Shown here: one piece after another, positions 33,516 through 56,919 of the stretch
Position numbering within the stretch: position 1 is the stretch's first letter
Layout of the letters: each line of letters begins with the position of its first letter
Assembly: GCA_022478985.1 (NCBI GenBank)
Contig: JAKSZP010006707.1
Location: 1 to 64,000 of the forward strand
Reading direction: 5' to 3'
Length of the DNA stretch: 64,000 nucleotides
Origin: Massospora cicadina
Lineage: Eukaryota; Entomophthoromycota; Entomophthoromycetes; Entomophthorales; Entomophthoraceae
The notes under the pieces: model-generated
What the model was told of the DNA's origin: nothing
Databases searched by the model: none
Seen by the model: only the letters and a program-made list of their open reading frames with translations
Translations under genes and position numbers: made by a program

Positions 33516-35433
33516 ATTTAACTGAGTTAAGCCAACCAGGGGACGGACATTACCAAACTAAAACTGAAATCATAATAAAAATAACAATTCAAATGAGACA
33601 CCCAAAATGGATGGATCGATTGAATTGTACCTAACAAAATATCCAACCAGGTGGGCAGCGAATACTACTATCCCTCCATGGTGGACAGGGAGGGGGGATC
33701 AGGGGGCTCATCATAAGCTGCATCCATCTCATTCCATAGTAGGGAGATGTTAAGGCAGATAGTAAGGGTGTGGGGGCATCAGCAGAATGGGGTTCAATAT
33801 CCTTGATGACTGGAACTTCCGAATAGTTGCCAGCCATCATATACCAACGATGTATTTGCCCAAAGTCTCTTCAGCTTCGAGGTGGGCGTCTGAGAATTTA
33901 ACGAACATGGCAATGTTGGTTCAGGTTATTTTTGCTTTCAGATTCCGTGCTACTTTTACCACGTTCTGGATGGCTTCAGTGACGTTTTTGTGTAAAGTTT
34001 TCATGTTGATCTTACTTTGTGCAGTAAATTTATGGGGATGACAGGAGGTGAAATTCCTCCTACAAGTGCAGCCACAAATTTGGCGGCAGCTTTGCAAAGT
34101 GGACGTCAATCTGTTGTGGTGGCTGCTTCTACTGCAAGCTGGTTGTCGCTGTAGAATGGTTTGGCATTAGGTTGTGGGACATATTTCTAAGGTGGGAATT
34201 TTGCATCCCATTCTGCATTACAAAGCTGCTTGAGTTGCAGCATCAGTTCTTCAATGACGTTACCTGATTCGTCGATTTTATCCAATAATTCCCATGGATT
34301 TTGGTTGAACTGCATTTAGGAATCAGTGTACAGTTGAGGTTTGTTCGATTCATATGTGGATGCAAGTGATCAAACTGGGATCCAATCTGATGTTTGGTTG
34401 GATGAATTATTTATGGCATTGGGGAAAGGTTGGTGCTAATTGGTGGCTGTAGGTGCAGCTGCAGCATCAGGCATTGGAGGAGGGGAAGGTAGGATTGTAC
34501 CTCATGTCAGAGTTGGTGTGGGGTAAGCAGTAGATTGGTGGGTGTTGGGCAAACTTTTGGCGTCGGAGGAAGTTTCTAAGTATGGGCATTTTTATTTTGA
34601 GTGGTCTAACTCAAAACAGGATGGACAAATCGTCCATCTGCACTTAACGCGGGCCCAGAATGGATGGTTGGGGGCAGATAAGATGGTGGCACTAGGAGGA
34701 ATTGCCAAAGAAATTTTTGTACATTCAGGGCTGATTGTGGCATATGCCCAAGGCCCAGCAAGGTGTGTGGCCCCATTTGGGACCACAAATTGTAAGATGG
34801 GGTTGGCGCTGTAGGCTGCCAAACCTTCCATCCGCTCCTAGTGGAGCACTTCAGGGGGAAGTGGGTGGGCAAACCAGCAAACTGGACCACAAGGTGGTGT
34901 CCATTGGGAGCTGGGTCTGAGTTGTTGGAGGGGAATACTGTTAAAAATTAATGGCACCATTGCCGCAGTGACTGCATCATCTTCACAGGGGAAGCTGAGA
35001 TCAAAGTACCCCTTATAGGGGCGGAAGTCTATAAAACAGGCTGGTGTCATCACCGCCTGAGCCATTTTGATATGGCTTGGTCATCGTAGGGGAAGAATTT
35101 CCCATATTTGACCCTAAGGCCAAAATGCATGTTGCTCTGGGGGAGCACCAGGGGGCAGCGGGGCACCACTTGGGTTTGGGCAAGATGGGCATTAAGATTC
35201 TTGGGAGGAATGAATCATCCCAAGGGTTTGTAATGACTGGGCGAGCCAGTCCAAGTGCATTTTCCTGTCAAATGGAAAACGGAGGGGAGAGTTTCACCGC
35301 CGCCCCACGCTGGGACAGTCAGCAGGGGATCTGATGACATCAGAGCAATACTTCAGTGTGCGATTAAGTGTTTGCTTTTAATTTACTGAAATTAATTTCC
35401 TTGGAAAGTTACACCAAGCAGAGAGAAGCTTGC
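33516..35433 (-). mobile_element. O3: complete ORF1-only non-LTR element (1.92 kb)
   Basis: A discrete insertion in the LINE-2 RT with a 15-bp target duplication. On the minus strand it has a leader of about 90 bp, one long decayed ORF1 (start at 35,340), a short 3' UTR, the tail GTCCGTCCCCTGGTTGGCTT (reverse complement of 33,531-33,551) and an AT-rich end (AACTCAGTTAAAT). There is no room for endonuclease or RT and no trace of either. The same length and layout recur in O4 (about 1.89 kb) and O5 (1.89 kb). Confidence 0.88.
33640..35340 (-). pseudogene. O3 ORF1-like protein
   Basis: Start at 35,340 (MSSDPLLTVPAWGGGETLPS), chosen because O5 shares MSSDPPPAVPVWGSG. Next, in other frames, VKYGKFFPYDDQA, CFIDFRPYKGYFDLSFPCED (an RRM-like beta-alpha-beta core conserved in O1, O4 and O5), LQFVVPNGATHLAGPWAY and the knuckle ICPSCFELDHSK (about 34,600-34,640). 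The C-terminal part has VKVARNLKAKIT, a helical TWxNIAxLxxxxDAHxxAE motif and an ADAPTP end. By analogy with LINE ORF1 and Gag it should bind RNA; that function is inferred. Confidence 0.8.
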
Positions 35434-35448
35434 GACGGAGTGTATATT

Positions 35449-36420
35449 GGTCCAGACAGATCGCCCTGGTATGAACCCAAACTGATTGGGCGACAAGCTT
35501 TTGGAGGCTATGTTGCTAATCTGGTGGCTAAAACTTTTGACAATATTTTTGTATCAGTGTTAGAGAGTGAAATTGGACGCCAGTTGCCAGATCCAGTTTG
35601 GCGCATTTTTAAACAGGGTTATGATAAAGGAGTTCTGCCCACGTGGTAGGAGGCGGGTCTCCAGCAAGCACTGATTCATTGATGCCAAGAGGAGGGGGGC
35701 GATTTGTTTGAAGTACTTCTTGTAGAAATTGTAAGATATCCCATCAGGCCCTGGGCATTTCCTATTTGGTGCACGACGGACTGTGTCCCGGAGCTCCTCC
35801 TGTGTGATTAGATTTAGTAAGTAAAAGTCTGGCAGTGTTCTTTGGATTCCAGCGTTGTGTATATAATTTCTAATTTTTTGGAAACCAGTTGGAGTGTCAC
35901 AGTACAGTTTGGTGTAGTAGCGGTGTACTTCCGCCTTGACCTCCTCTGGGTCAGTTGCCACAGTGCTTTCACCTTTGCGGACCTGTGTTCATTTGGGCTG
36001 GTTGCTGCGGGAGTGAAATTGGTGGAAAAGTATGTCAAGCAGGTTTTTCCATCCTTTATGAACTTACTTTTTTGAACTTGATTCTGTGCTGGTGTTCAAA
36101 GATGAGGGTGTTTAGGCAGGAGGATATTTCCGCCCATTTACGCCCCCAATTGGGGCTGTAGCAGGACTTCATGGTGTTGAGCTTGTGGTGGTCCAGTTCT
36201 GCCAAGGTGCGCCTGATTGCGGCTGTCAACAGTGTACTTGCGTGAGGTGAGATGGCAAGTTTTATTAATCTGACTATGAAATTTTCCCAGGTTGCAATGG
36301 GGTCCAATATGAATGGAGTTGCAAATTTGGGGTTCACGGTCTTATTTTCATCCCAGTTGAATAGTTCAGGCAAATTATAGTCTCTGGGTGCATCTTATTC
36401 CAGTTTGACGCCTGTGCGGG
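35449..36420 (-). pseudogene. LINE-2 reverse transcriptase N-terminal part
   Basis: Minus-strand frames: VKAEVHRYYTKLYCDTPTGF, RRAPNRKCPGPDGISYNFYK, YFKQIAPLLLASMNQCLLET and RLLPRGQNSFIITLFKNAPN, matching LINE-1 phrases KCPGPDGLPYEFFKKYFDYI and LLPGGQDAYVVTLFKKG. It continues into the region joined to 33,515 before O3 inserted. The endonuclease-RT spacer occupies 36,056-36,400. Confidence 0.85.
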
Positions 36421-36439
36421 AGTGAGGGTTGGCAAAAGC

Positions 36440-37090
36440 TGTACTGAAAGGAGTTGGTGGTCAGAGAAGTCTATTTTTAAATGAGAAGTTGGAGATGGTT
36501 GAACAGTGGGTTTTTGCTATGTGATGATGGAGTAAATTTATATAATTAAGATGAGCTTTCTTTCTTGTAAATTGGGGCGAGTCATGAAGGGGAGGAGTGG
36601 TGACCTGGGGGAGGGCATCGTGTAAGCCAAGGGACGCCTTCATTGCTTGTAATTCAATGTGCCCCAGGGGTAAACCCCTGTGTTCAGGCCATTGGTCTGT
36701 GTTGGGGTAAGCCCAGCAGTTGAAGTCTCCCAGTAGAATATTGTCTGGTGGTAGGGCGAGTGTTGGGATGGTCTTGAGGAATTGCTTCCTCTCAGCTGTA
36801 TTGCACGGTGCAAAGATGCATGCTATTGAGATTGTGTCATTCTGGCATGAGATCGTTACTACCAGGATGCATCTGTGAAGATAGGAGATTGAGTTTATAG
36901 TTAAATTTTTTATGATTATGGACGACCACCCCACAGTGGGACGTCTATACCAATTAGGATGGTGAGACCCTGGCTTACCAGTATCCCTCTTCCCCCTGCA
37001 GACAGTGGGTTTCTTGGATGGCCAAGATATCTACAGGGGTTCCGCAGTAAGTCTAGCTTTTTTGGCTTGGAAAGATTAGGCCCTAGCTCC
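36440..37090 (-). pseudogene. LINE-2 endonuclease domain
   Basis: A 157-residue minus-strand frame contains ISIACIFAPCNTAERKQFLK and NILLGDFNCWAYPNTDQWPE (GDFN metal/phosphate-site motif), and upstream VDILAIQETHCLQG with the metal-binding Glu in another frame near 37,000-37,045. SDHQ-like sequence lies at about 36,448-36,460. All core motifs match LINE-1. Stops and shifts disable it. Confidence 0.83.
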
Positions 37091-37399
37091 CACGATGTAG
37101 AATGTCCCTATGGACACTGAGTTGACCGCGGAGCCTCAGAAGCAGTTTGGAGGGCCGTCCAGCCCTATCCATTCACATTATTTCCAGTATTGGCTACGGG
37201 TGACTGGACCTGTCCCACCTGTGCATTTGTTCAATACCTTACCCTTTGCCAATTTCACGCGGGTCTTACTGTTGAGTGGGTTTGAGTTGGTCCCTTCCGC
37301 TCATGTCTTATGGTGACCTGATGTGGTGTGCTGGTTGCTCTCCGTGGTTGCAGGGTTTGCAGCTGTGTTTGTGTGTCCCATCTGTTTTCCAATAATGGG

Positions 37400-38290
37400 G
37401 CTGAATTGTTTGGCTAAATTCATTTGATTGGTGTCACTTGGTTTTCAGTCAAATTGTAGAGAATTTTTTTGTCTTGGGTTGTCTGATCTGATTGGTTGGC
37501 TCATATAATTTCCTCCATGTCTTTCTGGATCTGGCTGGGGGTGATGGAGGAGGCTGCGAGTGACGCTGCCATGGCCACGGCCTGTTTGTGGGCCTTCTGT
37601 GCCATTTTGTGCACTTTGGGTGAGACTGGGTCTATGAGAATTTACTGCCCGTCCTCTCCCCATAGAAAGGCGTGGTTGGTGTCAACGATTTTTGTAAAGT
37701 CTTCGCTGTCTTCTTCCATGGCGTCATTGCAGAAGTTGGGGGCCATTAGGCCCTCCTTCATGGGGCATGCGTGCACCTTGTGCCCCAAGGCTCTGCAGTA
37801 ATTGCAAATTGGCGGTGCACTTTCTGGTGTGACGCAGAACACTTTTGAGACACCCTCATCCAGGAGGTGGAACACTACTGTACTCAGGATCTTTGTGAGC
37901 TCCTCAACCACATCAGGGAGCAGGCTGATCATGACTATTTCCTTACCTGTGCACAGGTTTGGTATCAGGTGAAACTGCTGCAGTTCAAATTGTTTAAACT
38001 TGCCGTAACAGACAAGTACAGCTCAGAGCTTCTCCTCAATTACTTTTCAGGGGAGGCTGTTTGGGAGCTAGTCAAAATTGATGAACAAATATTTTGTTTT
38101 TATTCCATCTGGTTAGCATGATGCACACAATTCATTTGCCTTTGGGGAGGGCATTAAGACGCAGACACTTGTGGCAGCATCTGCATCTTCTTTAGTTTCA
38201 AATCCCTTTTAATCTAGCTATGGTGGATTGTATGGGTATTTATGTACACCGCGTGAGGTATAGTGTGGCCTGTGCCTCGCTCACTTTCTC
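37400..38290 (-). pseudogene. LINE-2 ORF1
   Basis: The minus-strand frames include PPICNYCRALGHKVHACPMK, the CX2CX4HX4C knuckle, flanked by VVEELTKI and MAPNFCNDAMEEDSEDFTKI; LINE-1 has PPICEFCSAIGHKDHACPIK at the same place. The C-terminal part (37,445-37,663) is low-complexity. The N-terminal third (38,000-38,290) is heavily shifted and its start cannot be placed; the LINE-2 leader then runs to 38,628. Confidence 0.8.
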
Positions 38291-38628
38291 CCACAAGGTT
38301 GAAGAATCGCCTTATAGATAGAGTCAGAGCCCATGCTATACTGGTGAGTGGGGTTGAGAATACTGGATCTCAAGGTATGCGTTTTGTTTAGTTGTAAATT
38401 TCACAAACCTGAACGGTGTATGGGTTTGTGGTTTCTTAGCGGCACTGGTTATTAGTCCTCACCAGGGTGTTTCTTGCACTTTGGTGCACCAGTCATCCCA
38501 TTGCCTAATATAACTTATGCCCAGTTTAGATTTTTTTATTAAAGTCGCCCATTTCTCCTATGTGATTATCAAACTACTATTCAATTGAATCTTTGTAACT
38601 AATGTGATTGATACGAAAAAGAAAATCT

Positions 38629-38643
38629 AATACTAAGAAAACA
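38629..38643. repeat. Target-site duplication of LINE-2 (right)
   Basis: AATACTAAGAAAACA, the partner of AATACCAAGGAAACA at 30,536-30,550. The uninterrupted Gy-D 5' LTR has a single related site near 49,050-49,070 (AAGATTACTAAGTAAATAGC). Confidence 0.85.
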
Positions 38644-39433
38644 GCCACAGCCATTATACAAATAATAACAAGTGGTGGCCCTCCTTTGGTTGTGGAAATT
38701 TTCTTGGAAGGAGCTACATCTTTAAACTCAATAAAGTCTAAAATTCTCTAATTTTATTTACAATTGTCTGTTTTTAAAAACGTATAAAATAACCTAGAAC
38801 TCTACTATAGGCAAAGTGCTGGGTTTTTATATTGATAAAAGGGGGAATACTTGAATATTCTTATGAAAACATGGTCTATGTCAAATATTACCAGGGGCGC
38901 TGGAATTTGTCCATAGTTGTTTTCTCATTTCTTCATTGTTCTCTAAGACCTCCATAATGGGTATGGCGGATGGCTTGTGTGATGCTTATATTTGGGAATT
39001 CTTAACATTTGTGGGCGTTGAATTTTCTTCTATTAACCCCCAAAACTGCTTTACCCATTTGAGTTTCATTTATTATTGCATCTGGGGGATTATAAATCTG
39101 TTTGTAGAATTCCTTTATTGGCATGACAAATTCGCCCCATTCAAGGTTCAATTGTAATCTGCTAGTATGATTGTAAAACCTTGGCATATGCCCATAATCT
39201 TATCTATGTACGCTTCAGTGGATTCTATAAATGATAGGGGCATTGGGGAACTAACTGGCTTGAGGTTGGGATGGTCATATTCTGGGAGGGGCAGCGGCCA
39301 CCCACCGATCATTTAGGGTGTGTCCCAAGTTTACTATACTCTACATGGCAGTGCTTGGGGACATTCCCTTTTTTTGGTCAAAAAAGGGTATAGCATCCTG
39401 TCCAGCTTAATGGCTACAGCGGGGACTCTTAAA
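38644..39433 (-). repeat. Gy-D 3' LTR, proximal part
   Basis: Matches 49,066-49,868: GGGTTTTTATATTGA (minus-strand TATAAAAACCC; TATA at 38,826-38,831), minus-strand AATAAAATTAGAG, and ATTTGTCCATAG. The right edge GGGGACTCTTAAA corresponds to GGGGACCCTTACA in the 5' LTR. The minus-strand sequence just before the LTR is TTTTTTTAGGAAAGGGTA, a good polypurine tract (39,434-39,451). Confidence 0.85.
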
Positions 39434-39449
39434 TACCCTTTCCTAAAAA

Positions 39450-40860: not shown

Positions 40861-41089
40861 CATCCAGAGGGGCTTTCCCCTCCAGGATCTTGTCACTTAA
40901 GGCTGTCCTTTTAGGAAATTTGGATTGGTTATTTAACATGACCTCTAGGAGTGAGACTTTTGTATTGATTGTTGGGCTTGCTTTGAGATTATTAGTTGGG
41001 GAAGGAGCAGTGATCGGCGTTTGGTTTGATTATACGCCAGATATACATCTTTCTTGGCTTGGGGAAGGGGTGATAGCGGCTATGGCTGC

Positions 41090-41680
41090 TAATTAAATTG
41101 GGAGTTCTGCCGCGACTTTCTCTGGTGGGATCACCATGACCAGTTCAGTATCCTCTGTGGGATCAGGTATGGCTGATGGACTTCTCAGAATGTCCAGTAG
41201 TATGTGCATTGGCCCTCAGATGGTCTTATATTTGAAGTCAAAATTAAGAAGTCACAGTGCATCATAGTTTGTTTATGTGCCAGATTCTGAGGTTGCCAGT
41301 AATATCAGTGATTTGTGGTTCATGCGCACTTTCATCGTGTGTTTTGCTTCCTGAAGCAAGTATCATCAGTGCATAAATGACCAGGCAACGGCAGCAATTC
41401 TTTGTTGTAGATTTCCCACGAGCGTTTGGCATATATGAATTTTCTGGAGATTTACACTAATGGGTATACGCATTATCATGCTCCTGCTTTAGAACGGCCC
41501 TTACAGCTGTTCCAGAGACATCCTATGCTACAATTAACAGTTTGCCTTTGTTGGCGTGATGCAAGGCTGACTCAGTGGCAAAAACTTCCTTGATGGCATT
41601 GAACGTATGTTGGCAATTTTTCGACCAAATAAATGGCGCGTTTTTGACATTAGGGTGTAACGGTGTGACCAAATATGAGA
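41090..41680 (-). pseudogene. Gy-D RNase H
   Basis: Minus strand: YSRKFIYAKRSWEIYNKELL near 41,380-41,450 corresponds to the YSRKL...Y...DKELLAI block of gypsy RNase H. The first-Asp motif region around 41,500-41,560 is too damaged to read. Stops in every frame. Confidence 0.6.
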
Positions 41681-41699
41681 TCAAAGGAGAGAATTTTTC

Positions 41700-42440
41700 T
41701 GTAATGTGAATAGTCCTAAAAACTGAAAAGCTACTTTTGGTTGGTGGGTGTAAACCATGATCTTATTGCTTCTAGCTTGGAGGGGGCAATGGCATGTCCA
41801 TCCTTGAGTACAAGGTTCCCTTTAACTGCACTTTATCCTTAAATTTTCGCATTTTGGGAGCTTTGCGTTCAGGCCTGACTTCTGTAGGTTGGCTGCCAAT
41901 GCTGCAAAGTCCTTTTCATGATGTTCAGGTGTGAGGAAAGAACCAAGATCTTGTCAATGTATGCCACGCCGCACATAAAGTGAAGGTCTCCCAGCACGTG
42001 ATTGACGACCCATAGGAATATGGTTGGGAAATTCTTAGGCCAAATGGTATGACCTTGAACTGATATATGCTGTGACATGTCCAGATAGCTGTCAGACATT
42101 CTTGTCCTTCTTTTACTCTAACTTGGTGGAACGCATTCACCAGGTACAGCTTTTTAGAATACTTTAGACTTTGAAATCTCTGGGAGATAGTGGCCCAAAT
42201 GGTAATGGGTAGGGGTCAGGAATGGTGACATTAATTAGGTGGCTATAGTCTATGCATGGTTGAAAGGTACCATATGATCTATGAGTGAACACCACTGGGG
42301 ACGACACTGGCGATTTCTTCTTAATTATTCATCCTTTGGCTAGCATTTTGTCAAGCCAGGTTTTCAAAGATTGATCTTTAGTGGCGGAGTAGGGGTATAG
42401 TGGATAGGTGATCTTGATGAGGGCCACCGTCAGACAAAAA
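41700..42440 (-). pseudogene. Gy-D reverse transcriptase, catalytic site damaged
   Basis: Minus strand: MNAFHQVRVKEGQECLTAIW, YQFKVIPFGL, then CGVAYIDKILVLSSHLNIMK. The active site reads Y-I-D-K, so the second catalytic Asp is replaced by Lys (plus-strand CTT near 41,950). The family usually has Y-[VIL]-D-D. Upstream LNAFHQVRVKE is the LxxAYxQIxxxE block. Frameshifts separate the fingers. Confidence 0.82.
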
Positions 42441-43060: not shown

Positions 43061-43434
43061 TGAGAAGTTGGGAGGGCATTGCTGTCAATTGGATGTAGGA
43101 TAGCGGGGCCAAAGTGGGGTCTTCTGAGTCCACTAATGGGCGTACATGGTCAAGGTTTTAAATGATTGAATTTCTTAAAATCATTTGAATTTTTATTTTT
43201 ATTCAAGGTACACCAACCAGATGATGGACATTACCGATACTCAATGAGCAAAAAAACTGAACAAAAGAATGAACAGATCAACAACCAAAAACCAAAAAAA
43301 ATATCTAACCAGGTGAGGAGTGGAATACCGCTAACCCACCATGGCAGAGTATGAGGGGGTTGAGCCGATCTTCTACAGGCATATTCTAGCTGGTCAGCAT
43401 CATTGAAGTTGTAGAAATGAACATAAGCGGAGAG

Positions 43435-46075
43435 CTAGGGTGTGGGGGCATCAGCATGGTGGGGGTGGATGAGGGTGAAAATTTGGTTACTATCCTCACG
43501 ATTAGCTTGGTAGACAGTTTCAGCAAGTTCCACTAATTGGTGATCAGTTTGAATGTGGGCATCCAGGAGTTGGGCCAAACTGGCTATATTTTGCCATGTG
43601 ATTTTAGCGGTTGGTTTAAATATTCCTAGGGTATCCACATGTATGACAGCGGCTTCAGCTTTATTAAGTAAATTAGTGATTTTGCCTCATGCTGCTTCAG
43701 GGAAATCAGGGGTAAAGGTGAGTGTGGTCAGACCTTCATAGAATTGAGAAACCAATCGGGACACTGCTTTGCATAGGTTTAGGTAATGGCTGAGGCCACC
43801 GCTGCTAAGGCGAGATGGTGGTCACTTTGGTAGGGGATGACAATGGGTTTAGGAGTGGATCGCTTAGGAGATGGGGATTTGTCAAAATCAGAAATTTAAA
43901 ATTCGGCCTAAACACTATCTAGCGGGCTGAGAGGTTCACTGGAGTCCTCATTAGCTACAACCTTACCTGATACATCATTTTCAGCCTATAAGTCCCATGG
44001 AAATGGTTCACAAGGATAGTAGATGAAGATTTTTGGTGGGTAAGAGTTGAATGGGTACTTGGGTGAGAATTTTGGTCCAGGCCTGATTCTGATTGGCGTG
44101 GGTGAAATTGGGTGGGATAATGTGGGTGGGTGATTTGGTGGGTGCCTATTTCCCACTATGGCCATCAAATGAGAATGTTGAGTGGGAGGGGAAACAAAAC
44201 GCCCCATTTGGAATCCGCCAAATATGGCTCAGAGGACACACCAGAGGAAGTGGCTTGGTGTCAGAATTTTTTGAAATGGTCAAGTCTGAAACAGAGAGGA
44301 CAACTTTGGCGACCATTACTCACCTGAGCCCAAAAGAAATGCTCTGGCGCCGCTGTGATACAAGTATGGAGGATTTTGTTGTGCTATAGCAGGGTAGTGT
44401 GAGATTATGGTGGCAGTGGCGCGAGGTGCATTGTCACAAAATTGACCCTGGGCTCCACTAGTGTGCTAGGCCAACCAGTATGAAGACTGGTGGCCCTTTG
44501 CTGTTTGGCTTCATTGGCATACAAACCCCTACAAGTCCTGTGTCCAACCCACCAAGTAACCACCAATGGCTTCGCCTTTAGCCCCAGGTGTCCTCAACAT
44601 GTGCCCCGGCAAGTCCTACCCCCTTCCTTGGCAGCTCAGGCACTTCCGCGCTGCCCCAACCTCGTGACCCTTCACCAACCCATCTGGGCTTGCCCCAGTG
44701 AGTCCATTCCCCTTCCTAGCGGCTATGGCAACTCCCACACTGTACCCCGCTAGGGTTGGTGGCCTGTCAGCGCATCCTCTGGTAGCCAGCTGGCCAGGTT
44801 CCCATTGGTTTCTCATAAGGAGGAGGCATGGGAGCTGGCAGTGCCAGCCACTCCAGGCATGATCACCCGCGCCTATTGGGGATCTCCTATCCCACCTTCC
44901 CCACTCTAGTTGCACTAAACTACTTCAAACAAACAGGAAAGATGGGAAAATGAGAGATGTTTATTAGGAGGGAATGAACGACTATTTATACTACTTTCAG
45001 GGCTACTGCACCCAAGTACTCTTTGGACAATCAACACGCAAAAACCCTTCAGTCTCTTGATTCCAAACCTCTATCAGATCATAAACTCATTCATTCATAC
45101 TTTATAGAGATTCCCTACAGATCTGCTCATATGATCACCAAATATTAAATTAGGTCAATCCATCCTCAGCATAAGTCGCTGGTTGATCATATATAAATTT
45201 GTAAATAAATAAGACTTTGAGCATTCTCGGCATGAGTCGCTGGCGCTCCAAATTAGTTGGCAGAACCATTTCAGATGATTTGTAATGAATTCATCAGCTT
45301 TCCGCTGGAAACTCCTGCAACAATCTTTGGATGGCATTTCAGCAGCAAACACAGCTTCCGCTGAACCTAAGCTCAATTATACATATAACATTGAATAGCA
45401 TCAAACTAGGCAATTAGCCAGCAAATATGCCCAGCTAACCAAAACCCCTAATTTGGATACTATTGGAAGGATTCATATGGCTAAAATCCCAACATGCATC
45501 AAGGCTCTCTGCTCCATAAGGAACACCAAAGACAAGGTTGGGCTGTGTTCCATAAGCCAGAAGCCCCACCATCAACCAATCATATAATAACTGGGATAAT
45601 AGGTGAGATGGGAGGAATGTGAAGGACACCACCAGTTTGTCTGAAGGAAGGCAAGTTTGGCTGTTAAAAATGGGAATGTTTTTGTAAACTAGGGGAGTAG
45701 AATCTGCTGCTGTAGCATCCTCCTCCATCTGGAAACCAATATCAAAATAGCCCTTAAATGGCCGGAAATCAATAAAGCCAGCCAGTGCAAATGAAGCAGT
45801 GGCTACTTCAATAATTGCCTTATCAGCATTTGGGAACAAGCGCCTGTAGTTGACTCTAAAGTAAATTTGGATATTGGAATGAGGGAGGGCGAGAGGATGG
45901 GGTTGAGAAGGGTGGATGTGCGCCAGGTGGAGCACTAAGTCCCATGGGGGACAAAACGGCCTGAAGAAGATGGTGGTCTATTTGACCCCATGCAAATGCA
46001 TTTACCCGCAGGGCGAAAAATGCTAGGCGGTGGAGTACCACTACCCCACATTGTAGCAGTAGGCGGTGGATCCAT
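43435..46075 (-). pseudogene. O4 ORF1-like protein, split by X3
   Basis: Start at 46,075 (MDPPPTATMWGSGTPPPS). A long frame 45,435-45,935 reads VNYRRLFPNADKAIIEVATA, GFIDFRPFKGYFDIGFQMEE and PNLVFGVPYGAESLDA, then is cut by X3. It resumes at 44,448 (APRATATIISHYPAIAQQ) and reaches the C-terminal ITWQNIASLAQLLDAHIQTD and HHADAPTP. It is the best preserved copy of the RNA-binding-like core. No RT motif occurs anywhere. Confidence 0.78.
44449..45494 (-). repeat. X3: solo-LTR-like repeat inside O4
   Basis: Longest X copy (1,046 bp): left end TGGGCTCC, ACCAGTATGAAGACTGGT hairpin (6-bp stem, 6-base loop), right end CCCAACA. On the minus strand TATAAATAG (44,984-44,990) is followed about 20 bp later by AATAAAC (44,959-44,965), the promoter and poly(A) arrangement of an LTR. 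It lies between homologous halves of the O4 ORF. Confidence 0.72.
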
Positions 46076-46130
46076 AGACATTTTTTTGGAAAATGGGCGT
46101 GGCCAGATGGCTGTGGAAAATTAAACGCTT

Positions 46131-48553
46131 TTTCTTATAAAATTCACATAAAGTGATATCAAGCGGAAAGAAAGGTCAAATCAATGATTCCAATTCAGTG
46201 GCGTTAAATTTGATTTTTCATCAATTTAAGTGGGTAAGGTGACACCATTTGAGGCCTGTGGGTTTACTGAATAAAGAGAATACCCAGGGGTCTATTTACT
46301 ATGTCCACCACAAGGTTCATTAGGCTAGGCCTTTGGGGTCAGGCTGCAGCACCAGAGTCCTGGAGGTGCAGTGCAGTAAATCATGATGGGATCTTGGATT
46401 GTAAAACAACTGGCTGTCCCATGTGGATCTGGGTGTGCTTCATGGGTTTTAGGTAAGGGGGTACCAACTGTGAGAAATTGAGGACTAGCTCACTTATTAA
46501 TGTATTACTGCTTTGATAGTTGGGAGGAGTTTCAGCTGATAAATCCTCAATTATGCTATGTGTCTTATGGTATTTCCTAACCGTTTGGAAGCTCACAAAG
46601 CTATACAACAATAAATGGCTCTTCTGGTCTTCTTTTGGGTATATTTTCTCTCTCTAATTAGGAACTCTCCAGACACAGGTACTTATGACAAGCTCCCCTG
46701 AATGCTTTTCTACACTTCTTATTATGAAAAACAAATTAAGATAAGACAAAAATATGAAAGTATGGAAAGATGATGATTTTATTTTAGGGACAGTCGCTGG
46801 TTTTTTATACCTCTAGGGCATCTCCTGGCCATACTCATCTATTGGATGAATTCATTAAAATCATGCCCTTCCACTATGGATTATGGCAGTGTTTTTATTA
46901 GAATATCCCCAGGTTAATTTGGCCCGTGAATTAACTTAATTAAAATCATTTCAGCCTGATTGGAGGCACTACTACTCTTGTAAGTGGGAAGATTATTAGA
47001 CTTAATATTAGCACCTCAGAGCTGTAAATTCGGCTCTCAATCAGCCTGATTACTTTTTGTCATACAGCTGAAGAAATACAATAAATGGGGAGATTAAAAA
47101 TATAGAGTTTGAATTATGATGCACCCCTAATTGGGACGTCAGCAGGCATCTTAATAGTACTAGGTACTCCCTATTTGGGCCGTCCATGTGCAAGTACCAT
47201 TGTGCCAATTACAATGATTGACATACATTAAAAATAGAACTCTTTAATTGTTTTTGCATTAAAATTTTCAAATGCAATTAGGTTTCTGCCGTAGATTACT
47301 TGGTTCACCCAAGTGGATCCCATAATTATCCATAATGATATTATATCATAGCTATTATTAGCTATGATAATTGGGTCATTTAGATGCAATCAAGGCGATT
47401 TTGAGGTGAATTTGGTTTTTCAGATTATGCAGATAAATTGGGAAGGATAAAAGGATCCATCAATGGGAGTAATCTATTAACATAATAGTCTTCCTGAAGG
47501 GTTTATTCTTGAGTCAACCATCAAAATCTAACACCAACTCAGATCCTCCACTAGATTGAGGCCATGTGGGGGTTTAGGGAGTGAGGAAGAGTACTGCCAG
47601 TGCATGTGGGTTTGATAGCTTGGTGGTTTTTATTTTCTGGGTTGGACTCAGATGTGCCATCAGCGTATTGGTCTAATTCTCTTCTTTGTAGTTGGATGCC
47701 TTCTCCTCTCCATCTGATAGCATAAGAGCACCCTCATTGGTAATATAAAGGGGTGCTCTGTTGGTCTAGTGGTATGGTCTGGTGGGGTCGGTTTCCTTTT
47801 CCATCTTAAACTAGTTTGGGCTCAATATGTTGAGCAGGATATATGCTCTCTTTAAGGTCTGGGGTCTTTTTGTATAATGTCACATGAGAGTTCACCCCCT
47901 GTTTGAGGGAGACCCATAAGGCAACAATTACAAGTTCATTTTGGAGTTGAAGGGAGCCAACTAGCTTCCAGAATGCCTTAATATGGTTGTTTAAATCTGG
48001 AACAAGGGTCCGTTGGTGGACTAGAGTATAGATAAGCTGTGGTTCTGACGTCAAGGTGACTACCATTGATAAAACAATTTCGGAAAAAGAGTGAGGGGCT
48101 CCCCTAAGTGGAAACGCTGGTAAAATACTGTGTTAGTCCACGTTTTCTCCTCACTTTGTAGGGTTTTAAATAGGGCCAACAATTACTGTTCCTCAGAGAA
48201 CTATGTTTCCTATTAATGCAGCTTGGAGTTGCAGTTCAGCCAGAAAATACCAGCACCTACCAGGCTATCTTGAGGCGCAGGAGGTGGGCCCTATCACTGT
48301 CACGTTGGAGGCTGGATCGTTTGAGGGAGGAGATTAGTTGTGCTGCCTAAATGAGAAGCACATGATTGATTGTTTAATTAGTTTAGTCCAGTACCAACAT
48401 GTCAGGAGGGCGCGCACAAGGCCATAAAGGCTTCTTTTGGCTAGCGGCTGACTCATATTTAAAAGTACTTTGGCCATTGACATCACCATAGTTATTAAGT
48501 GGCTAGGTTATTATGTCAGACAATTGGCATTTCAAGGAAAAATTGGCTTCTAC
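46131..48553 (-). pseudogene. Gy-D leader and gag region
   Basis: Between the 5' LTR and O4. Readable minus-strand pieces are 86 residues at 47,806-48,066 (LVPDLNNHIKAFWKLVGSLQ ...) and 76 residues at 46,381-46,611, consistent with gag but without a CCHC knuckle. 46,620-47,550 is AT-rich and contains its own minus-strand TATAAAAAA (46,801-46,809) followed by AATAAA (46,778-46,783), so another solo LTR may be inserted there. Confidence 0.45.
46778..46809 (-). promoter_or_regulatory. LTR-like TATA and poly(A) pair in the Gy-D gag region
   Basis: Minus-strand GAGGTATAAAAAACC then about 20 bp to AATAAAATC. The spacing matches X3 and Gy-G. I could not delimit the LTR it would belong to. Confidence 0.3.
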
Positions 48554-49868
48554 TGTGGTAATACAATACCTACTATAGCATCCATAGTACACGTAGCATC
48601 GCTGTTCTGGGAATTTTGAGTAAGATCCATTGGTAAAGAGGTTTGGAAAATATTAATTTATGACCAATACCATTCCAACTATCAAACTGAGAACCTGTAA
48701 CAACCTTGCCCATGCATCCCAAGATGTGGAGGGAACAATATGTCCAGGTGGGGGTGCTTGTGCTTGTTGTTCTGAATCAGGATCAAGGTTGGGATTGGTC
48801 TGAACATGCACCTTATAGTGGGCAATGGTCGCCATATCTCCAGTTTAAGTATGCTAGGATTCTTATTGACATTCCATTCTATTACAATGTTTCCTTCAAT
48901 ATGGTCTAGAGCGCGGTGGATCAGTTTGGTCAGTTCAGCATTTGGGTCAGTGCAGGGATTGCCGCTCACATATCCATGGGAGGGAGGTTTTATGGTCATC
49001 TCCCCAGGGTGGACTCCTTGGTTTCCTCCATTAAGAGAGGCTACACTAAGATTACTAAGTAAATAGCAACCACCATTATGGAAAATAATGAGTGGGAGAC
49101 CTTCATTGCTCATGGCAATTTTGGCAGGGGGGACTGAATCTTTAAAATTAATAAAATTTAAATTTTTCTGATTTTCTTGAAGTTATCAATTTTAGTAAGG
49201 GAAAGAACAAAATAACTTAGCACTATACTGAAAGGAAGTGCGATGGGTTTTTATATTGAGAAAGGGTAGGAGACACACATTTTCTATGAAAAAATGGAGG
49301 CTGTCAAATTTTCTCAGGGGCACTATGATTTGTCCATAGATATTTTCTCAAGTCGTCCATAGTTTTCTGGGAACTCTAAAATTGGATACAGCGGATTCTC
49401 ATTTGACGCTTTGACTTGGGTACTTTCTCAGCTTTTGAAAGTGCCAAATTTTACTCTATTATTTCCTCTGGGATTGCTTCCCCCACACAAATTTCTTTGA
49501 ACGTTTCATCTGGGAGGTTATTAATTCATTCATTTTAATTTTCCCCTAAGTTTGGGAGTGGTGATTTTTCCCCTTACAAGAGTCTGATTGTAATCCACTA
49601 GTATGATTGAGCATAACTTGGCATATGTCCTTGATTTTATATATGTATGCCTTGGTAGATTCTGCAATGATAGGGGGTTGAGGAACCTTCTGGTTTAAGG
49701 TTGAGAAGGGCGTATTCTGGGTGAAGCGGTGGACACCCACTGCTCACCAAGGGTATGTCCTAGGTCTGTTATTTTCTTTAGCGGCAGTGCTTGAGGACAC
49801 TTCTTTACTTTGTTTGAAAGGGGTGTAGCATCCTGGTCATCCTGATGGCTGTGGCGGGGACCCTTACA
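48554..49868 (-). repeat. Gy-D 5' LTR
   Basis: Uninterrupted 1,315-bp copy; minus strand starts TGTAAGGGTCCCC and ends near CCACA. TATAAAAACCC (TATA at 49,250-49,255) is present. A 143-residue open frame (48,682-49,113) and an overlapping one (48,653-48,835; MATIAHYKVHVQTNPNLDPD) lie in its 3' part, and the second has a similar translation in the 3' LTR copy (HYYQVHVQTDPKLDPNSEQ, about 30,250-30,310). Confidence 0.85.
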
Positions 49869-50689
49869 ATATGTCTTTCATCCATAATGAAGCCCATCTT
49901 TAAACACTAAATACTCATTTTTCTCATTTCTAAATTGACTTAATGTATGTGCTCTCTTATCATCATCCTTTATTCCTGTTTTCTCCCTCATCCCTAGTAC
50001 CTGCTTAGAAAGTTCATATATCATCACTCTTCTATAATTGCATCTTCTTGATCTTCTCTGAAAAAATTAAAAGACTTAGTTTTAATTGGGTTTAGTAATT
50101 ACTAGTTTTTATTCTCAAATCATTTTGACGGCCTGTTCACAACTATTGTCCTCCAGCCTCCCTACCCCAATAGGCGTCTCAGTTGGATTTGAGCTAAAAG
50201 TGGAAAAAATATCTGAATAATAATTAAATTAAATTAAAGAACAAAATAAAGATAAAATAAAAAATTGGAAGTTTCTTTTTCTATATAATATTTTTTATCT
50301 ATTTCTATTTTTGTTTTTATGTGTATATTTTCCATTTAAATAGAATTTACTATAAAATCTAATAATTATATGACCATTAATTACATTTTGTTCACATAGG
50401 CATCAGTTGCCAATTTTTAAAAAATTATTATAGGACCAATCCACATATAATTTACTATCTTTTAGTAACTAAACCTAGAAGTATTGCAATAAGCTATTTT
50501 ATCTTCAATCTGCAAATTTTGAGACGGCAGGTTATTTTTATCAATGTAATTTTTCAGGATGGTTTTCCACCAAATTTTTGTATCATAAGCCAGAAATTGC
50601 AGGTTGATTATAAAAATCTAGCTTATATAAATATTGTTTGGTACTCATCTTTGATGTTAAGTCCAAGTAGAATATAAGATTTGCATTAG
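49869..50689. other. AT-rich stretch without recognisable genes
   Basis: Runs such as AATTAAATTAAAGAAC and TATATAATATTTTTTATC; no frame of note. It lies between Gy-D and the integrase end of Gy-E and may hold the Gy-E 3' LTR. Confidence 0.3.
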
Positions 50690-50863
50690 ATCTGCTCACC
50701 ATCCATACAACAACTTAAAAGGTGTTGCCTCATGGCAGAATTTTAGCTGATGATTTATTAAAACGTCACTAATCTCAGATAACCAAGAGGATATGTTAGT
50801 TGAGATTAATTAGGATTTGTTGCTGCTAATATAACCATCAGAAAAATTCTTTTCCAGCGACAG
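50690..50863 (-). pseudogene. Gy-E integrase, C-terminal part
   Basis: The minus strand reads NISSWLSEISDVLINHQLKF then CHEATPFKLLYGW, matching the (L)xEFAYNNSxHSSTGxSPFELLYG block of gypsy integrases. It is separated from the rest of the core by X2. Confidence 0.65.
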
Positions 50864-51797
50864 TGGGATCTGCTAGTTGGCTAGCCGACCATATGAAGAC
50901 TAATTAGACCTTGTCATTTAACCTTAGGCATCATGGCCAGCAGTGCCAGATGACACCTTGGCATGCCACCCAAGCCATTCAGGGATCTCCCATCCCAGAC
51001 ACCAACCAGTAAGTATAAACATAAACTTAAATCAAAAGGGAGAATAGGCAAAGGGAGATTTTTATTGAAAGGGAAGCTCCAGGTATATTTACAAAAGGGC
51101 TACTGCACCCACCACCTATCAGCTCATTGCTGGACCTTCCAGTCAACCACTCTCTCTTTCTTTCTGCGCTTCTCACTTCCATGGCATTGACCCTCTCACT
51201 CCACCCTTTCCATTGTCCAAATTTGTTTTAGCTCATCCTCAGCCTTGAGTTGCTGGTGAGCCATATAAATTACTTATAAAATTTTTACCAAATTTGTATT
51301 TGACATTTGATTTGCTTAGTAATTATACACTGGAACCTCTTCAGTCGCTTTCTTAACTCAGGATGATTCAGCTCCTGGCTGATGACATACTTTAACTCTT
51401 ATTAGTCGGTTACTTGGTGTTCTGCATACCTTAGGTAACAGCTCATGTTCAACTTTCATTGTCAATTAATACAAAAGATGCTAAAAAACTTTGGCATCTT
51501 AAACTTGGGCTGTCAGTTTCCTCTGACATATAATAAATAAACCAATTGGATCATTCTTGGCTATTAGTCACTGTTATCCTTATACTAAATTGGGGCCATC
51601 AATTGCCCCACTCAATCCTGACTTCCAATATCAACGGAATATTTGGATTTGGCTTGACCCAATTTGGGGAGCAGCATCCTAATAATTGTACTAATAACCA
51701 CGAAATCTAGTCAGTAAGCTATTCCACCAGGACTGGCCTATTTTATTATAAATCCTCTTATATTATTGATGAAACCCATCTGGTTAATTTTCTGACA
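50864..51797 (-). repeat. X2: solo-LTR-like repeat inside Gy-E integrase
   Basis: 934 bp, aligned end to end with X1: TGGGATCTGCTAG at the left, minus-strand AATAAAAATCTCC near 51,055-51,065, CTTCCAGTCAACCACTCTC, CAGCCTTGAGTTGCTGGTGAGCC, and CATCTGGTTAATTTTCTGACA at the right. CAGCGACA to the left (50,856-50,863) and CAGTGACA spanning the right edge may be a target duplication, with some ambiguity about the exact ends. Confidence 0.7.
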
Positions 51798-53179: not shown

Positions 53180-53700
53180 ACTTTTAGTTTAGCACCAGCC
53201 AATTGTTGAAACACTTCTTAGAGTTGAATAATAAGGGCGATGAATGTTATGCTAATGACGTTAAAGTCATTTAAGTAAAACTAAGACACAGGAAAACTTT
53301 AAATTAGCAAAGATGTTATCCATAACCCCTTGTAAAATAGCAGGCATATTACAAAGCCCTTGCAACATCCTCATTGGGGTGATAAAGCCCTTGATCTGTT
53401 TTAATAGCATATTTCTTTTGACACTCATGGAGAAAATCAATTTGCAAATACTTAAAATAAGGTCCATTGGGGAGAAAAGTTTTTGGCTCTGCCAAGACAA
53501 TCTAAAGCATAAACTTCTCTAAGCAAAGGGTAAAAATCCTTCTTAGTTATTTTGTTAAGGCTTAGATATTCAATAATGACTAAACTCAAACTATTTTTTA
53601 ATATCAAAATGGGCTAGCCTATGGATTGAAGATAGCACAAATAAACTATTTTCAAACAACTTTTAAATTTATTCGGAACCAGTGCCTCAATGGCTCTCAT
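53180..53700 (-). pseudogene. Gy-E reverse transcriptase
   Basis: A 77-residue minus-strand frame reads LFSPMDLILSICKLIFSMSV, KRNMLLKQIKGFITPMRMLQ and GLCNMPAILQGVMDNIFANL. This covers the KxDLxSGYxQI through GLxNAPATFQxxMN blocks. The Y-x-D-D box just downstream (about 53,270) reads CVLVLLK, so it is lost. Sequence at 53,700-55,013 should hold RT fingers, protease and gag but only stop-rich fragments are visible. Confidence 0.65.
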
Positions 53701-54997
53701 CTTAAAACCAGAATTATCAAAATTAGTTCCAATCTCCCAGTATTAACCTTGTGAATGTTTTTTGCGCAGCCAAGGTCATAATTATTTTGAGCAAATCAAG
53801 TGGTACTTCTAAAATAGGACTTGAACTTCCCCTTCTGAAACTCCACTAGTCTTGTTAACTAATTCAATTGATATTTACATCCACGTCTTTGACAGCTTCT
53901 CCAAGTAATCCCGTCATATCCAGGTTGTTAAAATCTTGAACGCCCATGATTACCATTACAGGGATCATATAGGAAAATGCAATAGTTTAATTTTACACGC
54001 ATGATTTGATTCTTTCTTAGATTAGCAACTAAAAAAATTTCTCCACAACCTGAAACTAGAATCCCTAAGCTATACAAGGTTTAATTCTAAATTTTACATG
54101 AATCATTAATTTCTTTTTAAAGTTATCAGGATTTATAGTATCAAATCCAAATTTAATTACATATTGCATCATGGACTGAATAATGATCACTATCTTAGCC
54201 CAAATAGAATTTTATTATATCCTTCATGTGGGTAGGCATACTTTGTACACTTTTTTGAATTTTTTCAGATAAGAATAACGCCAACTTTATAAATTAGATT
54301 CACAAATTTATACCTTCTAATTGCAATAAAACCCCTTTCCAGTTGTAAAGCAATCACAACGTCTGTCACAGAGTTTTTAATGCGTTTCCATAAAGTCACA
54401 TTTGCATCATACTTTCTTAAGAACTTGTTACTAATGAGATCAAAAGTGGTAGGGCAACATAATTGCTAGTGCAGAGACAACCAATGATTATAAATTAGGG
54501 GAAAGAACTATAAGCCCTACTTGAGGTGATAGAATTGGGTTCCACCGTCCCATATCCCTTCTTGGTGTTCTGGATTTGGCGTAATATGACCATTTTTGGA
54601 AAATTTGGTCAAGATGATATTTAGAGAACCACTATTGATGATGCATTATCTTTTCCATGTTTGACCAAAGTGTCTGCATATGTACACTCAGAGTATTCAG
54701 AAAGGCTGTTTACTGTGAGTATAGCTTTTTTGCTTACCAATTATAAAGTATGGATCAAATTGGGCGTAAATTTTAGGGAATAACTCCCAAATGGTAATCA
54801 TATGAATTTTGACATTGATTTCATTTAGTTTAAACTAAATCTTTTTTCCGCATATTTGGTGTTTCTCATTTTATTGACTAGTTGTAAGTCGTAGGGTCAA
54901 GGCACTTATAGTTTAATATTAAGTCAATCTTCTTACCCGTGATCCTGTTCATTTATACTAAAGAACAGCCTGAGATATCTCAAAATTAGGATGATAA

Positions 54998-55013
54998 AAC
55001 ATGATTATCCTCC
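54998..55013. repeat. Target-site duplication of O5 (left)
   Basis: AACATGATTATCCTCC here and AACATAATTGTCCTCC at 56,904-56,919, with two transitions in 16 bp. This is the length expected of target-primed non-LTR insertion. Confidence 0.88.
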
Positions 55014-56903
55014 CTCTTTCCGTTTGACACCAATTTTAAGCAAATTTTGAAAAAACAGTTGTTTTCTACCGCCACCTCACCACATCAATTTTCCAATTTA
55101 TGTCCTCAGATCCACCACCTGCTGTACCAGTGTGGGGCAGCGGTGCTACACTCACTAGTGTTTACTGCCCAGCAGACAAACTCGTACAGACTGGCTTGTC
55201 CAGTCTGCCAAATACATTTGGCTGCTGTCCCCCAAGGGACTTAGCACTCCACTTTGCATGAGTCCACCCAACCTGCCCCATCCCTTAGCCCTACCTTGAT
55301 CCACTATCCACTTTTGCCTCCATTTTGAGTATGGATGTCTCTTATATATGCTGAAAAAGCAATAATTGAGCTGGCAACTGCCACCTTTGCACCAGCAGGA
55401 TTTATAGACTTCCGCACTAACAAGGGCTATTTTGATATAGGCTTCCCCACTGAAGAGGACGCGGCCGCTGCGGCAGCTACGCTCTTAATATACAAAATAC
55501 CCCCATTACCACCACCTGAACACGTCTCCCAGATGGTACCACTCTCGTGTTGCCATTTGCAAACCTACCCTCACATTTCTCCCTCAAAATCTTTATGAGG
55601 AGTTGATGTCAGGGCTGTACAAAAATGGAAAAGCCCCCATAATCCTTTCATTGTCCCAAGTGGTGATGAGCACCTCACGGAACCTTGGGAAATGGCCACC
55701 ATTACCCCCCACCAGCTGAACATGGCCCAGCACATCCCACCGCATGCCTATATCATATATGCACCCAACCATTTCTTTTGGGCTCACATTGACAACGGTT
55801 GCACAATTTGCCCCCTCTGCCATAAGTTGGACCATACAAAAAACATGTCAATACAATTCAAACCCTGAAAACACTGCAACTCCATCCATGAGGCCACACT
55901 GACAGCGTTTGAGTGGGGATTTTGTCTGCCTCACCCCCCAGGTTGTGCACTCGATAAATCAGCAGCAAAATCTAGCAACCCAAATCTAAGCCGGCCAATT
56001 TACACCCATGCCAACCAATTGGGAGCAGGTTTGGACCCATATTTTTTCCAAAAGTTTTCCCACTCCAAAACCTAACCAACCACAGCCACCTATCACCAAA
56101 TAAATCCAAGTCAACCAAAATCTCTGGGACTTATTGGATGAAGTGACCAAATATAGCGAAATTGTCCCACCACTAGATTTTCCAATCGATTTAGAACCTT
56201 ATCTGAATTCAGACTTTGATGCCCCAGACCCGTGCAACCAATATGTCCCCAAACCAACGCTACCCTTTCCAAACCAACAACTAGCTTGCCAAGGCTGTAG
56301 TGGTCTCACCCAAAAATTGCCATATTTGCAAAGACGTGGTAAAATATGTTGCTGACATTAAGGAAGGGCTGCATATCACCCAGTCCCCCTAATTTCCCTG
56401 CTATTGCAAAAGAGGAATACAAACGCCTCTTTGAAACTTCCACCACCGCTATCAAACATGTCACTAAACTGGAAGATTTTTCCCCATCCACACATGTCAC
56501 CAGAGCCAACATTGCGAAATTATCCCAGCTTCCCAACGCCCACATCCAAGCTGAACACCATGTTGCCAATCCCATAGAGGCTAAGATCTAGGCCCAAAGT
56601 GTTGATCTCTGACTATCTATTTCACCTTGAACCTCATCCCGCGGATGCTCCAGCCCCTTGCTATCAGTATTGATCCTCCTCTTCAATGCTGAATCCTTTG
56701 ATCCGCCTGATCCCACCTCCCCCTCCGCCATGATGGGATAAGCGGCTCGCCGCTGTGCTACCTAGTAAAATTATTTTTTCGTTTTTTTGTTTGCCTCACT
56801 GCTCATTTAGGGCGGTTGGTTCATGCTTTTGATTGGTTTAGTTTTATAGTTTCTGTTTTAGTATTGTCCATCCCCTGGTCGGCTTGCCTTGATTTAATAA
56901 AAA
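55014..56903 (+). mobile_element. O5: complete ORF1-only non-LTR element (1.89 kb)
   Basis: Bounded by a 16-bp target duplication. It has a leader of about 86 bp, ORF1 from 55,100, a 3' UTR, and the tail GTCCATCCCCTGGTCGGCTT (56,868-56,887) followed by GCCTTGATTTAATAAAAA up to the duplication. Same layout and length as O3 and O4, in the opposite orientation and at an unrelated target. No endonuclease or RT. Confidence 0.9.
55100..56760 (+). pseudogene. O5 ORF1-like protein
   Basis: MSSDPPPAVPVWGSGATLTS at the N-terminus (ATG at 55,100). Then AEKAIIELATATFAPAGFID and FRTNKGYFDIGFPTEEDAAA (55,335-55,598), knuckle CTICPLCHKLDHTKNM (about 55,798-55,848; the last Cys is now Met), and the C-terminal domain RANIAKLSQLPNAHIQAEHH (56,346-56,591). 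Frames shift repeatedly. A basic/proline-rich linker lies between the knuckle and the C-terminal domain. Role inferred as RNA binding. Confidence 0.78.
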
Positions 56904-56919
56904 AACATAATTGTCCTCC

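What the first reader, a model, noticed from the sequence alone, without database searches (positions are those of the whole stretch)
33516..56903. A family of 1.9-kb protein-coding non-LTR elements with only an ORF1-like gene
O3 (33,516-35,433), O4 (43,191-46,130 minus X3) and O5 (55,014-56,903) are separate insertions of 1,918, about 1,894 and 1,890 bp. O3 and O5 have clear target duplications of 15-16 bp, and O4 has a probable one. Each has one long decayed ORF with a shared N-terminus (MSSDP...WGSG), an RNA-binding-like core (GFIDFRPFKGYFDIGF), a CX2CX4HX4C knuckle and a shared C-terminal domain, and none has room for endonuclease or RT. The equal lengths argue against independent deletions. 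The arrangement parallels mammalian HAL1 (an ORF1-only derivative of L1), but here the ORF1 differs from that of the co-resident LINEs.
Basis: partly seen in the sequence, partly recalled or inferred. Interest (0 to 1): 0.75.

Follow-up and report, generated by a model that had tools for sequence, protein, structure and literature searches.

The report
Fungal jumping gene borrowing LINE machinery
A family of 1.9-kb jumping genes, probably from a giant-genome insect-killing fungus, carries only one gene of its own and appears to be copied by larger LINE elements whose end-tag it shares.

Summary
O3, O4 and O5 are related insertions of about 1.9 kb (57-64% identical). A fourth site (25,743-28,604) holds O6a and the 5'-truncated O6b. 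O3 and O5 have significant target duplications; O4's is not supported.

The copies keep protein-level similarity in 9 of 23 blocks tested, and no EN or RT query matches inside them. One protein search found only two relatives, both from Massospora cicadina, a fungus with a 1.49-Gb, L1-bearing genome.

The main new result is at the ends. A model built only from the four O 3' tails finds the 3' ends of both RT-bearing LINEs in the window (E 7e-7 and 3e-5) and nothing else below E 1.9. O elements thus look like ORF1-only passengers copied in trans by co-resident LINEs through a shared 3' tail. They work like HAL1 and HeT-A, but here ORF1 has diverged beyond BLAST recognition while the tail stayed recognisable. 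A 5' likeness to one LINE is weaker.

Not shown: trans-mobilisation, RNA binding, ORF1 homology to the LINEs, copy number, and whether a full LINE with this ORF1 exists. The genome search did not complete.

The parts
33516..35432 (-). O3, full-length ORF1-only element, about 1,917 bp, inserted in LINE2's reverse transcriptase region
   Evidence: alignments; target duplication 33,499-33,515 / 35,432-35,448, 15/17 nt, 0 of 400 random pairs as good; LINE1 RT residues 7-32 match on one side of O3 and 25-305 on the other, so the RT gene runs on across it
43192..46172 (-). O4, full-length element interrupted by insert X3; about 1.92-1.93 kb without X3; no convincing target duplication
   Evidence: M. 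cicadina P0044 matches 45,956-45,495 (64% identity) and then 44,429-44,364, on the two sides of X3; TSD not supported
44430..45494 (.). X3, unrelated insert in O4 (upper border uncertain by about 20 bp), similar in part to 31,655-31,926 and 50,926-51,111
55014..56903 (+). O5, full-length element, 1,890 bp
   Evidence: target duplication 54,996-55,013 / 56,902-56,919, 16/18 nt, 0 of 400 random pairs as good
25743..26586 (+). O6a, 5' part of another copy, through the knuckle, then unalignable
27265..28604 (+). O6b, 5'-truncated copy with 3' tail, nearest to O3
   Evidence: model positions 566-1935, E 2e-109; no target duplication found (175 of 400 random as good)
33513..33554 (-). O3 3' tail shared with the LINEs
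43194..43235 (-). O4 3' tail
56860..56901 (+). O5 3' tail
28566..28607 (+). O6b 3' tail
30551..38628 (-). LINE2, RT-bearing LINE and possible donor (ORF1, presumed EN, RT, C-terminal region; decayed; carries O3 and a further repeat); 3' tail 30,551-30,593
   Evidence: target duplication 30,536-30,550 / 38,629-38,643, 13/15 nt, 1 of 400 random pairs as good; flanks 30,003-30,548 and 38,631-39,435 match adjoining stretches 48,514-49,063 and 49,053-49,871, an uninterrupted relative of the insertion site
11684..17048 (-). LINE1, second RT-bearing LINE; ORF1 15,774-16,712, RT 12,822-14,656; 3' tail 11,684-11,726; 5' end 17,023-17,048 resembles the O 5' ends
   Evidence: (RVT_1 E 5e-25); no target duplication found (261 of 400 random as good), so its limits are not independently fixed
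45495..45956 (-). best preserved O4 ORF stretch, 64% identical to M. cicadina P0044

Best explanation
The O elements are non-autonomous non-LTR retrotransposons that encode one protein, an ORF1-type protein with a degraded zinc knuckle, and no endonuclease or RT. Their RNA is probably bound by its own ORF1 protein and then copied in trans, by target-primed reverse transcription, by the ORF2 protein of co-resident L1/Tx1-like LINEs, which recognise the shared 3' tail of about 42 nt. Shown: no EN/RT match, near-constant length of three copies, target duplications on two copies, one 5'-truncated copy, a 3' tail shared with both LINEs, and protein-level constraint. Suggested only: a 5' end shared with LINE1 and remote ORF1 homology. 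Inferred: RNA binding, trans-copying, and descent from a LINE by loss of ORF2.
For: Tail model from the four O tails alone: LINE2 E 6.8e-7, LINE1 E 2.8e-5, next hit E 1.9. By mean ungapped match to the four O tails, the two LINE tails rank 5th and 6th of 127,916 window positions, behind only the O tails. The 18-nt motif of O6b gives 5 matches with up to 3 mismatches where 100 shuffles gave none, and the 5 lie at the 3' ends of O3, O5, O6b, LINE1 and LINE2 (O4 has more mismatches). LINE2's 3' limit, just behind its tail, is fixed by a target duplication (1 of 400) and by an uninterrupted relative of its insertion site. Target duplications of O3 and O5: 0 of 400 each. Constraint: O5-O4 4 of 11 blocks p<0.05, Fisher 1.5e-6; O3-O6 5 of 12, Fisher 8e-5; LINE1-LINE2 control 23 of 27; the two tail blocks, non-coding, p 0.50 and 0.65. 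No EN/RT match in the O copies. LINE1's 5' end ranks 4th of 127,950 positions, behind O3, O4 and O5. Relatives P0044 (E 6e-31) and P0045 (E 7e-13) in M. cicadina, a genome reported to be 6.3% L1 LINEs (PMC11105155, passages).
Against: No genome-wide search was possible. O4, O6b and LINE1 have no significant target duplication. The 26-nt 5' comparison was made after I saw the likeness by eye; models of about 95 nt of the O 5' ends did not find either LINE start at E <= 20, and LINE2's start does not match (rank 181). A tail hairpin fits all 24 pair cells, but with one-sided changes only, its shuffle control is uninformative, and single sequences do not clearly prefer it. 14 of 23 O blocks are not individually significant, and a plain codon-position test was weak: 6 of 48 windows p<0.05. 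Fold and domain of ORF1 are unsupported.
Confidence: 0.8

Rival explanations
1. The O elements have their own autonomous parent: a full LINE with the O-type ORF1 plus EN/RT exists elsewhere in the genome (as TAHRE is to HeT-A), and the 1.9-kb form is its deletion derivative. The LINEs of this window are only cousins.
For: Two O-type proteins in M. cicadina show that the lineage is wider than this window; their downstream DNA could not be seen. O6a loses its similarity after the knuckle, so its 3' part is unknown.
Against: No O copy in the window carries RT. The LINE2 tail is as close to the O tails (27-33 of 42) as those are to each other (25-31 of 42) and the LINE1 tail nearly so (24-29), so these LINEs would suffice as donors.
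Confidence: 0.13
2. The O copies are processed pseudogenes of a host gene that LINEs retro-copied several times.
For: Single ORF, A-rich 3' end, target duplications on two copies.
Against: A host mRNA would not be expected to share its 3' tail with two LINEs. The copies are about as diverged from each other as the two LINEs are.
Confidence: 0.04
3. The copies are independent internal deletions of one longer LINE.
For: 3' tail shared with both LINEs, and a 5' likeness to LINE1.
Against: Three full-length copies have the same length within about 45 bp; O-type queries found neither LINE's ORF1 by tblastn at E <= 0.01 and BLASTP gave E 0.2 at best, so they are no recent deletions of these LINEs.
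Confidence: 0.03

Closest known systems
HAL1 ('half-L1'), mammals
   Same: encodes only ORF1, has target duplications, depends on RT/EN of full-length LINEs (PMC5322556, passages)
   Different: HAL1 is a truncated L1 with its ORF1 and a poly(A) tail; here ORF1 is beyond BLAST recognition from the co-resident LINEs, the 3' tail is a specific shared sequence, and the host is probably an early-diverging fungus
HeT-A, Drosophila telomeres
   Same: only an ORF1, no RT, relies on another non-LTR element; a two-ORF relative (TAHRE) exists (PMC4700185, passages)
   Different: HeT-A goes to chromosome ends; O3 and O5 sit within other sequence with 17-18-nt target duplications
Stringent-type LINE/SINE pairs, such as ZmSINE2/LINE1-1_ZM and SINEX-3_CR/L1-1_CR
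   Same: non-autonomous and autonomous partner share the 3' end, also within the L1 clade (PMC3747384, passages)
   Different: SINEs are short and non-coding; O elements are 1.9 kb with a constrained ORF; the tail hairpin is not established

Membership tests
HAL1-type ORF1-only derivative | ORF1 present, ORF2 (EN/RT) absent | tested here: met
   no RT or presumed-EN match in O3-O6 at E <= 0.01; ORF constraint
HAL1-type ORF1-only derivative | ORF1 descends from the partner LINE's ORF1 | tested here: inconclusive
   BLASTP E 0.2 and 1.9 at best; collinear hhalign E 0.0075-0.01 but probability only 4-5%; score 23.7 against 200 column shuffles of mean 12.6, sd 2.5, max 27.1
HAL1-type ORF1-only derivative | target-site duplications | tested here: met
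   O3 and O5 (0 of 400 random as good); O4 and O6b not
HAL1-type ORF1-only derivative | poly(A) tail, truncated mammalian L1 | tested here: not met
   tails end in short A-rich, AATAAA-like runs behind a specific motif; probable host is a fungus
HAL1-type ORF1-only derivative | copied in trans by the LINE ORF2 protein | not testable with these tools
   needs a retrotransposition or RT assay
Stringent-type LINE partner (LINE/SINE-like pair) | 3' end shared with an RT-bearing LINE | tested here: met
   LINE1 E 2.8e-5, LINE2 E 6.8e-7
Stringent-type LINE partner (LINE/SINE-like pair) | conserved stem-loop near the 3' end | tested here: inconclusive
   24 of 24 cells pair but no two-sided change and an uninformative shuffle control; single folds do not clearly prefer it
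SINE | short, non-coding, pol III (often tRNA-derived) head | tested here: not met
   about 1.9 kb with constrained ORF; ARAGORN, run with its bacterial setting, finds no tRNA in the window
Autonomous L1-clade LINE | own EN and RT | tested here: not met
HeT-A | telomere-specific tandem arrays | tested here: not met
   separate insertions, two with target duplications, O3 inside LINE2

The most novel reading that the evidence does not exclude
A long-lived lineage of protein-coding LINE parasites in a giant-genome fungus. It keeps its own ORF1 under selection and has diversified beside its LINE hosts for about as long as those LINEs themselves, while its 3' tail stayed locked to theirs. The polymerase interface is thus constrained while the ORF1 partnership is free to change.
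Probability: 0.5. Interest if true: 0.75.

Novelty: new variant of a known kind. Interest (0 to 1): 0.6.

Why it matters
Non-autonomous partners of LINEs are usually non-coding (established knowledge). Protein-coding ones such as HAL1 and HeT-A raise the question why a passenger should keep ORF1. This family offers diverged O copies, two LINE partners with readable tails, and a probable host genome with many L1 LINEs, so one can ask whether tail and ORF1 evolve independently and whether ORF1 gives the passenger its own cis-preference.

Tried and rejected
Codon-position periodicity of mismatches was too weak on decayed copies (6 of 48 windows p<0.05) and was replaced by a substitution-permutation test on protein scores. 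Structure predictions of LINE1 ORF1 and of the O4 core gave mean pLDDT 30 and 38, so I ran no fold search. Pfam on O pieces, P0044 and P0045 gave nothing significant. A protein search with LINE1 ORF1 found none of 758 candidates at E <= 0.01. Searches of viral contigs with the O core and the LINE1 RT, and of prokaryote genome contigs with the O core, found no relative. Rfam (gathering threshold) and tRNA scans of the window were empty. Models of about 95 nt of the O 5' ends found only the O copies they were made from at significant E; the shorter 26-nt comparison was done afterwards. An O4 target duplication and a single-insertion reading of O6 were rejected. A conserved tail hairpin is left open. 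ORF1 homology between O and LINE is left as suggestive. The best non-O hit among 1,615 window fragments was the ORF1 region of LINE2 for two O-core profiles (E 0.15 and 0.3) but only the third for a later profile (E 0.23). The knuckle profile's best non-O hit was LINE1 ORF1 at E 0.89, and the reverse search with LINE ORF1 did not single out O pieces.

Ten literature searches listed no report of an ORF1-only LINE in fungi. Several lists were cut to the best 6-15 of up to 154 papers, and the library holds open-licence papers only. The HAL1 paper of Bao and Jurka and Ohshima 2012 are not held; I know them only through citing papers.
Full report
What was checked. The three elements named in the finding are real and related. 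In a self-comparison of the window, O3, O4 and O5 align with each other at 57-64% identity. Limits were refined with profile and local alignments: O3 33,516-35,432 (-), O4 43,192-46,172 (-) with an unrelated insert X3 at about 44,430 to 45,477-45,494, O5 55,014-56,903 (+). Lengths are about 1,917, 1,920-1,930 (without X3) and 1,890 bp. Target duplications were scored against 400 random pairs of positions. O3 (15/17 nt) and O5 (16/18 nt) beat all 400. O4's best candidate was matched by 36 of 400 and is not supported.

More copies. Two more pieces lie on the + strand. O6a (25,743-26,586) has the 5' part through the knuckle. O6b (27,265-28,604) starts at model position 566 and runs to the 3' tail. 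They overlap by about 280 element positions, so they are not one interrupted copy. O6b looks like a 5'-truncated insertion, but no target duplication was found for it.

Coding capacity. Open fragments in the copies line up in one order: an N-terminus (MSSDP/MSMDP...WGSG), a core, a degraded knuckle and a C-terminal part, broken by stops and frameshifts. From the first shared ATG to the end of the similarity the ORF would have spanned roughly 500-550 codons (my estimate). To ask whether the protein mattered, I kept the substitutions of each ungapped block of 45 nt or more and moved them at random, scoring the best frame on both sides. O5-O4 keep more protein similarity than expected in 4 of 11 blocks (Fisher 1.5e-6) and O3-O6 in 5 of 12 (Fisher 8e-5). 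The two LINEs, as positive control, do so in 23 of 27. The two blocks that cover only the 3' tail do not (p 0.50 and 0.65). So 14 of 23 O blocks are not significant on their own, which is expected for copies that have since decayed but is also a limit. A plain codon-position count was weak (6 of 48 windows p<0.05). No RT query and no presumed EN query matches inside any O copy at E <= 0.01. The EN label rests on position and recalled motifs; Pfam gave no match for that LINE2 stretch.

Partners in the window. Two RT-bearing LINEs are present. LINE1 (11,684-17,048, -) has ORF1, a presumed EN and an RT (RVT_1, E 5e-25). LINE2 (30,551-38,628, -) is decayed and carries O3 inside its RT region; LINE1 RT residues 7-32 match on one side of O3 and 25-305 on the other. 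LINE2's ends are fixed in two ways: a target duplication (13/15 nt; 1 of 400 random as good), and a repeat whose halves flank LINE2 (30,003-30,548 and 38,631-39,435) while its relative elsewhere is uninterrupted (48,514-49,063 and 49,053-49,871). The LINE1 RT's best hits include an unnamed protein, a 'Transposon tx1' protein filed under a plant, and proteins of Absidia and Rhizopus. I call the LINEs L1/Tx1-like on these hits; no tree was made.

Shared ends. The 3' ends of O3, O4, O5 and O6b and of both LINEs carry the same stretch of about 42 nt, close to GTCCATCCCCTGGTCAGC followed by an A-rich end. A profile of the four O tails alone finds LINE2 (E 6.8e-7) and LINE1 (E 2.8e-5), and nothing else below E 1.9 in 64 kb. 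By mean match, the LINE tails rank 5th and 6th of 127,916 positions, after the four O tails. The closest of all pairs is LINE2-O3, 33 of 42. At the 5' end the case is weaker. A 26-nt stretch of O3, O4 and O5 has its best other match in the window at the start of LINE1 (rank 4 of 127,950; mean 17.3 matches, next 14.7), but I chose it after seeing the likeness, longer 5' models did not find LINE1, and LINE2's start does not match (rank 181). A small hairpin is possible in all six tails, but all changes are one-sided, the shuffle control cannot tell, and single sequences do not clearly prefer it.

ORF1 of O against ORF1 of the LINEs. BLASTP finds at best E 0.2 and 1.9, though in collinear places, and nothing in a third comparison. 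Profile comparison aligns the O knuckle part with LINE ORF1 93-180 (E 0.0075) and the O core with LINE ORF1 26-48 (E 0.01) or, with the two Massospora proteins added, 26-101 (E 0.01). The order is right, but hhalign's probabilities are only 4-5%. Against 200 column shuffles the last score (23.7) lies far above the mean (12.6, sd 2.5), yet the highest shuffle reached 27.1. I take remote homology as likely but not shown.

Relatives and host. A profile of O5 (one frame, X at stops) with six open pieces from O3, O4 and O6 found two proteins with E <= 0.1 among 7,690 candidates from a database of 5.8 billion: P0044 (191 aa, E 6e-31) and P0045 (123 aa, E 7e-13), both from Massospora cicadina. That search sees only proteins of similar length that share exact words. 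P0044 is 64% identical to O4 over 155 residues and its last part matches O4 again beyond X3. P0045 matches O3 at 65% over 48 residues, though its lowest E-value is to O4 (43% over 96). The published M. cicadina assembly is 1.49 Gb, 41.13% GC and 92% TEs (PMC9584336, part 1 of 3). 6.3% of the genome is L1 LINEs, which another paper calls unique among the entomophthoralean fungi it compared (PMC11105155, passages). The window has 42.2% GC. It is therefore probably from M. cicadina or a close relative; no tool named it.

How it most likely works. An O transcript encodes its ORF1-type protein, which binds it (inferred). The ORF2 protein of a co-resident LINE recognises the shared tail (inferred from the shared sequence) and inserts the copy by target-primed reverse transcription; two target duplications and one 5'-truncated copy fit this. 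LINEs and O copies are about equally diverged among themselves (O blocks 51-84%, LINE blocks 46-74% identity), so the passenger lineage seems old.

What is known. HAL1 (PMC5322556, passages) and HeT-A (PMC4700185, passages) are ORF1-only and depend on other non-LTR elements. L1-clade LINE/SINE pairs with shared 3' ends are known from maize and Chlamydomonas (PMC3747384, passages). The O family combines both: it codes for an ORF1-type protein and shares a specific tail. Ten literature searches listed no such case in fungi. Their lists were capped, the library holds open-licence papers only, and repeat databases could not be searched.

Limits. All of this rests on one window with four sites of copies, two distant proteins and no genome search. 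No tool supports a fold or domain for the O protein. Trans-mobilisation is inference.

Noticed in passing
986-2093 and 6354-7460: A direct repeat of 1.1 kb, 86.6% identical, flanks Ty3-like pol sequence (RT/RNase H at 3,819-4,754): probably one Ty3 element with its two LTRs.
   Followed up: no
31,673-32,592 and 50,864-51,796; part of X3 (44,430-45,494): A repeat pair of about 0.9 kb (68.6% identical), one copy inside LINE2; parts of X3 (about 80 and 190 nt) match the same stretches, so X3 may be a third copy; type not determined.
   Followed up: partly
26,587-27,264: Between O6a and O6b lies a stretch that matches neither; its first 300 bases have open fragments and the rest is AT-rich. Whether O6a has another 3' half is unknown.
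   Followed up: partly
43,305-43,317 (-), 28,462-28,476 (+): The O 3' UTRs may hold a second, partial copy of the CCTGGTTGG part of the tail about 70-110 nt upstream; the tail model's hits there are not significant (E 4.5 and 2.3).
   Followed up: no
9,996-10,608; 20,986-21,753; 41,386-42,152: Further decayed Ty3-like pol fragments, so the window is a nest of old retroelements.
   Followed up: no
30,003-30,548 with 48,514-49,063; 38,631-39,435 with 49,053-49,871: LINE2 sits inside one copy of a repeat (75% and 69% identical halves) whose other copy at 48.5-49.9 kb is uninterrupted; the two matches overlap there by 11 nt, as a target duplication would make them do.
   Followed up: partly
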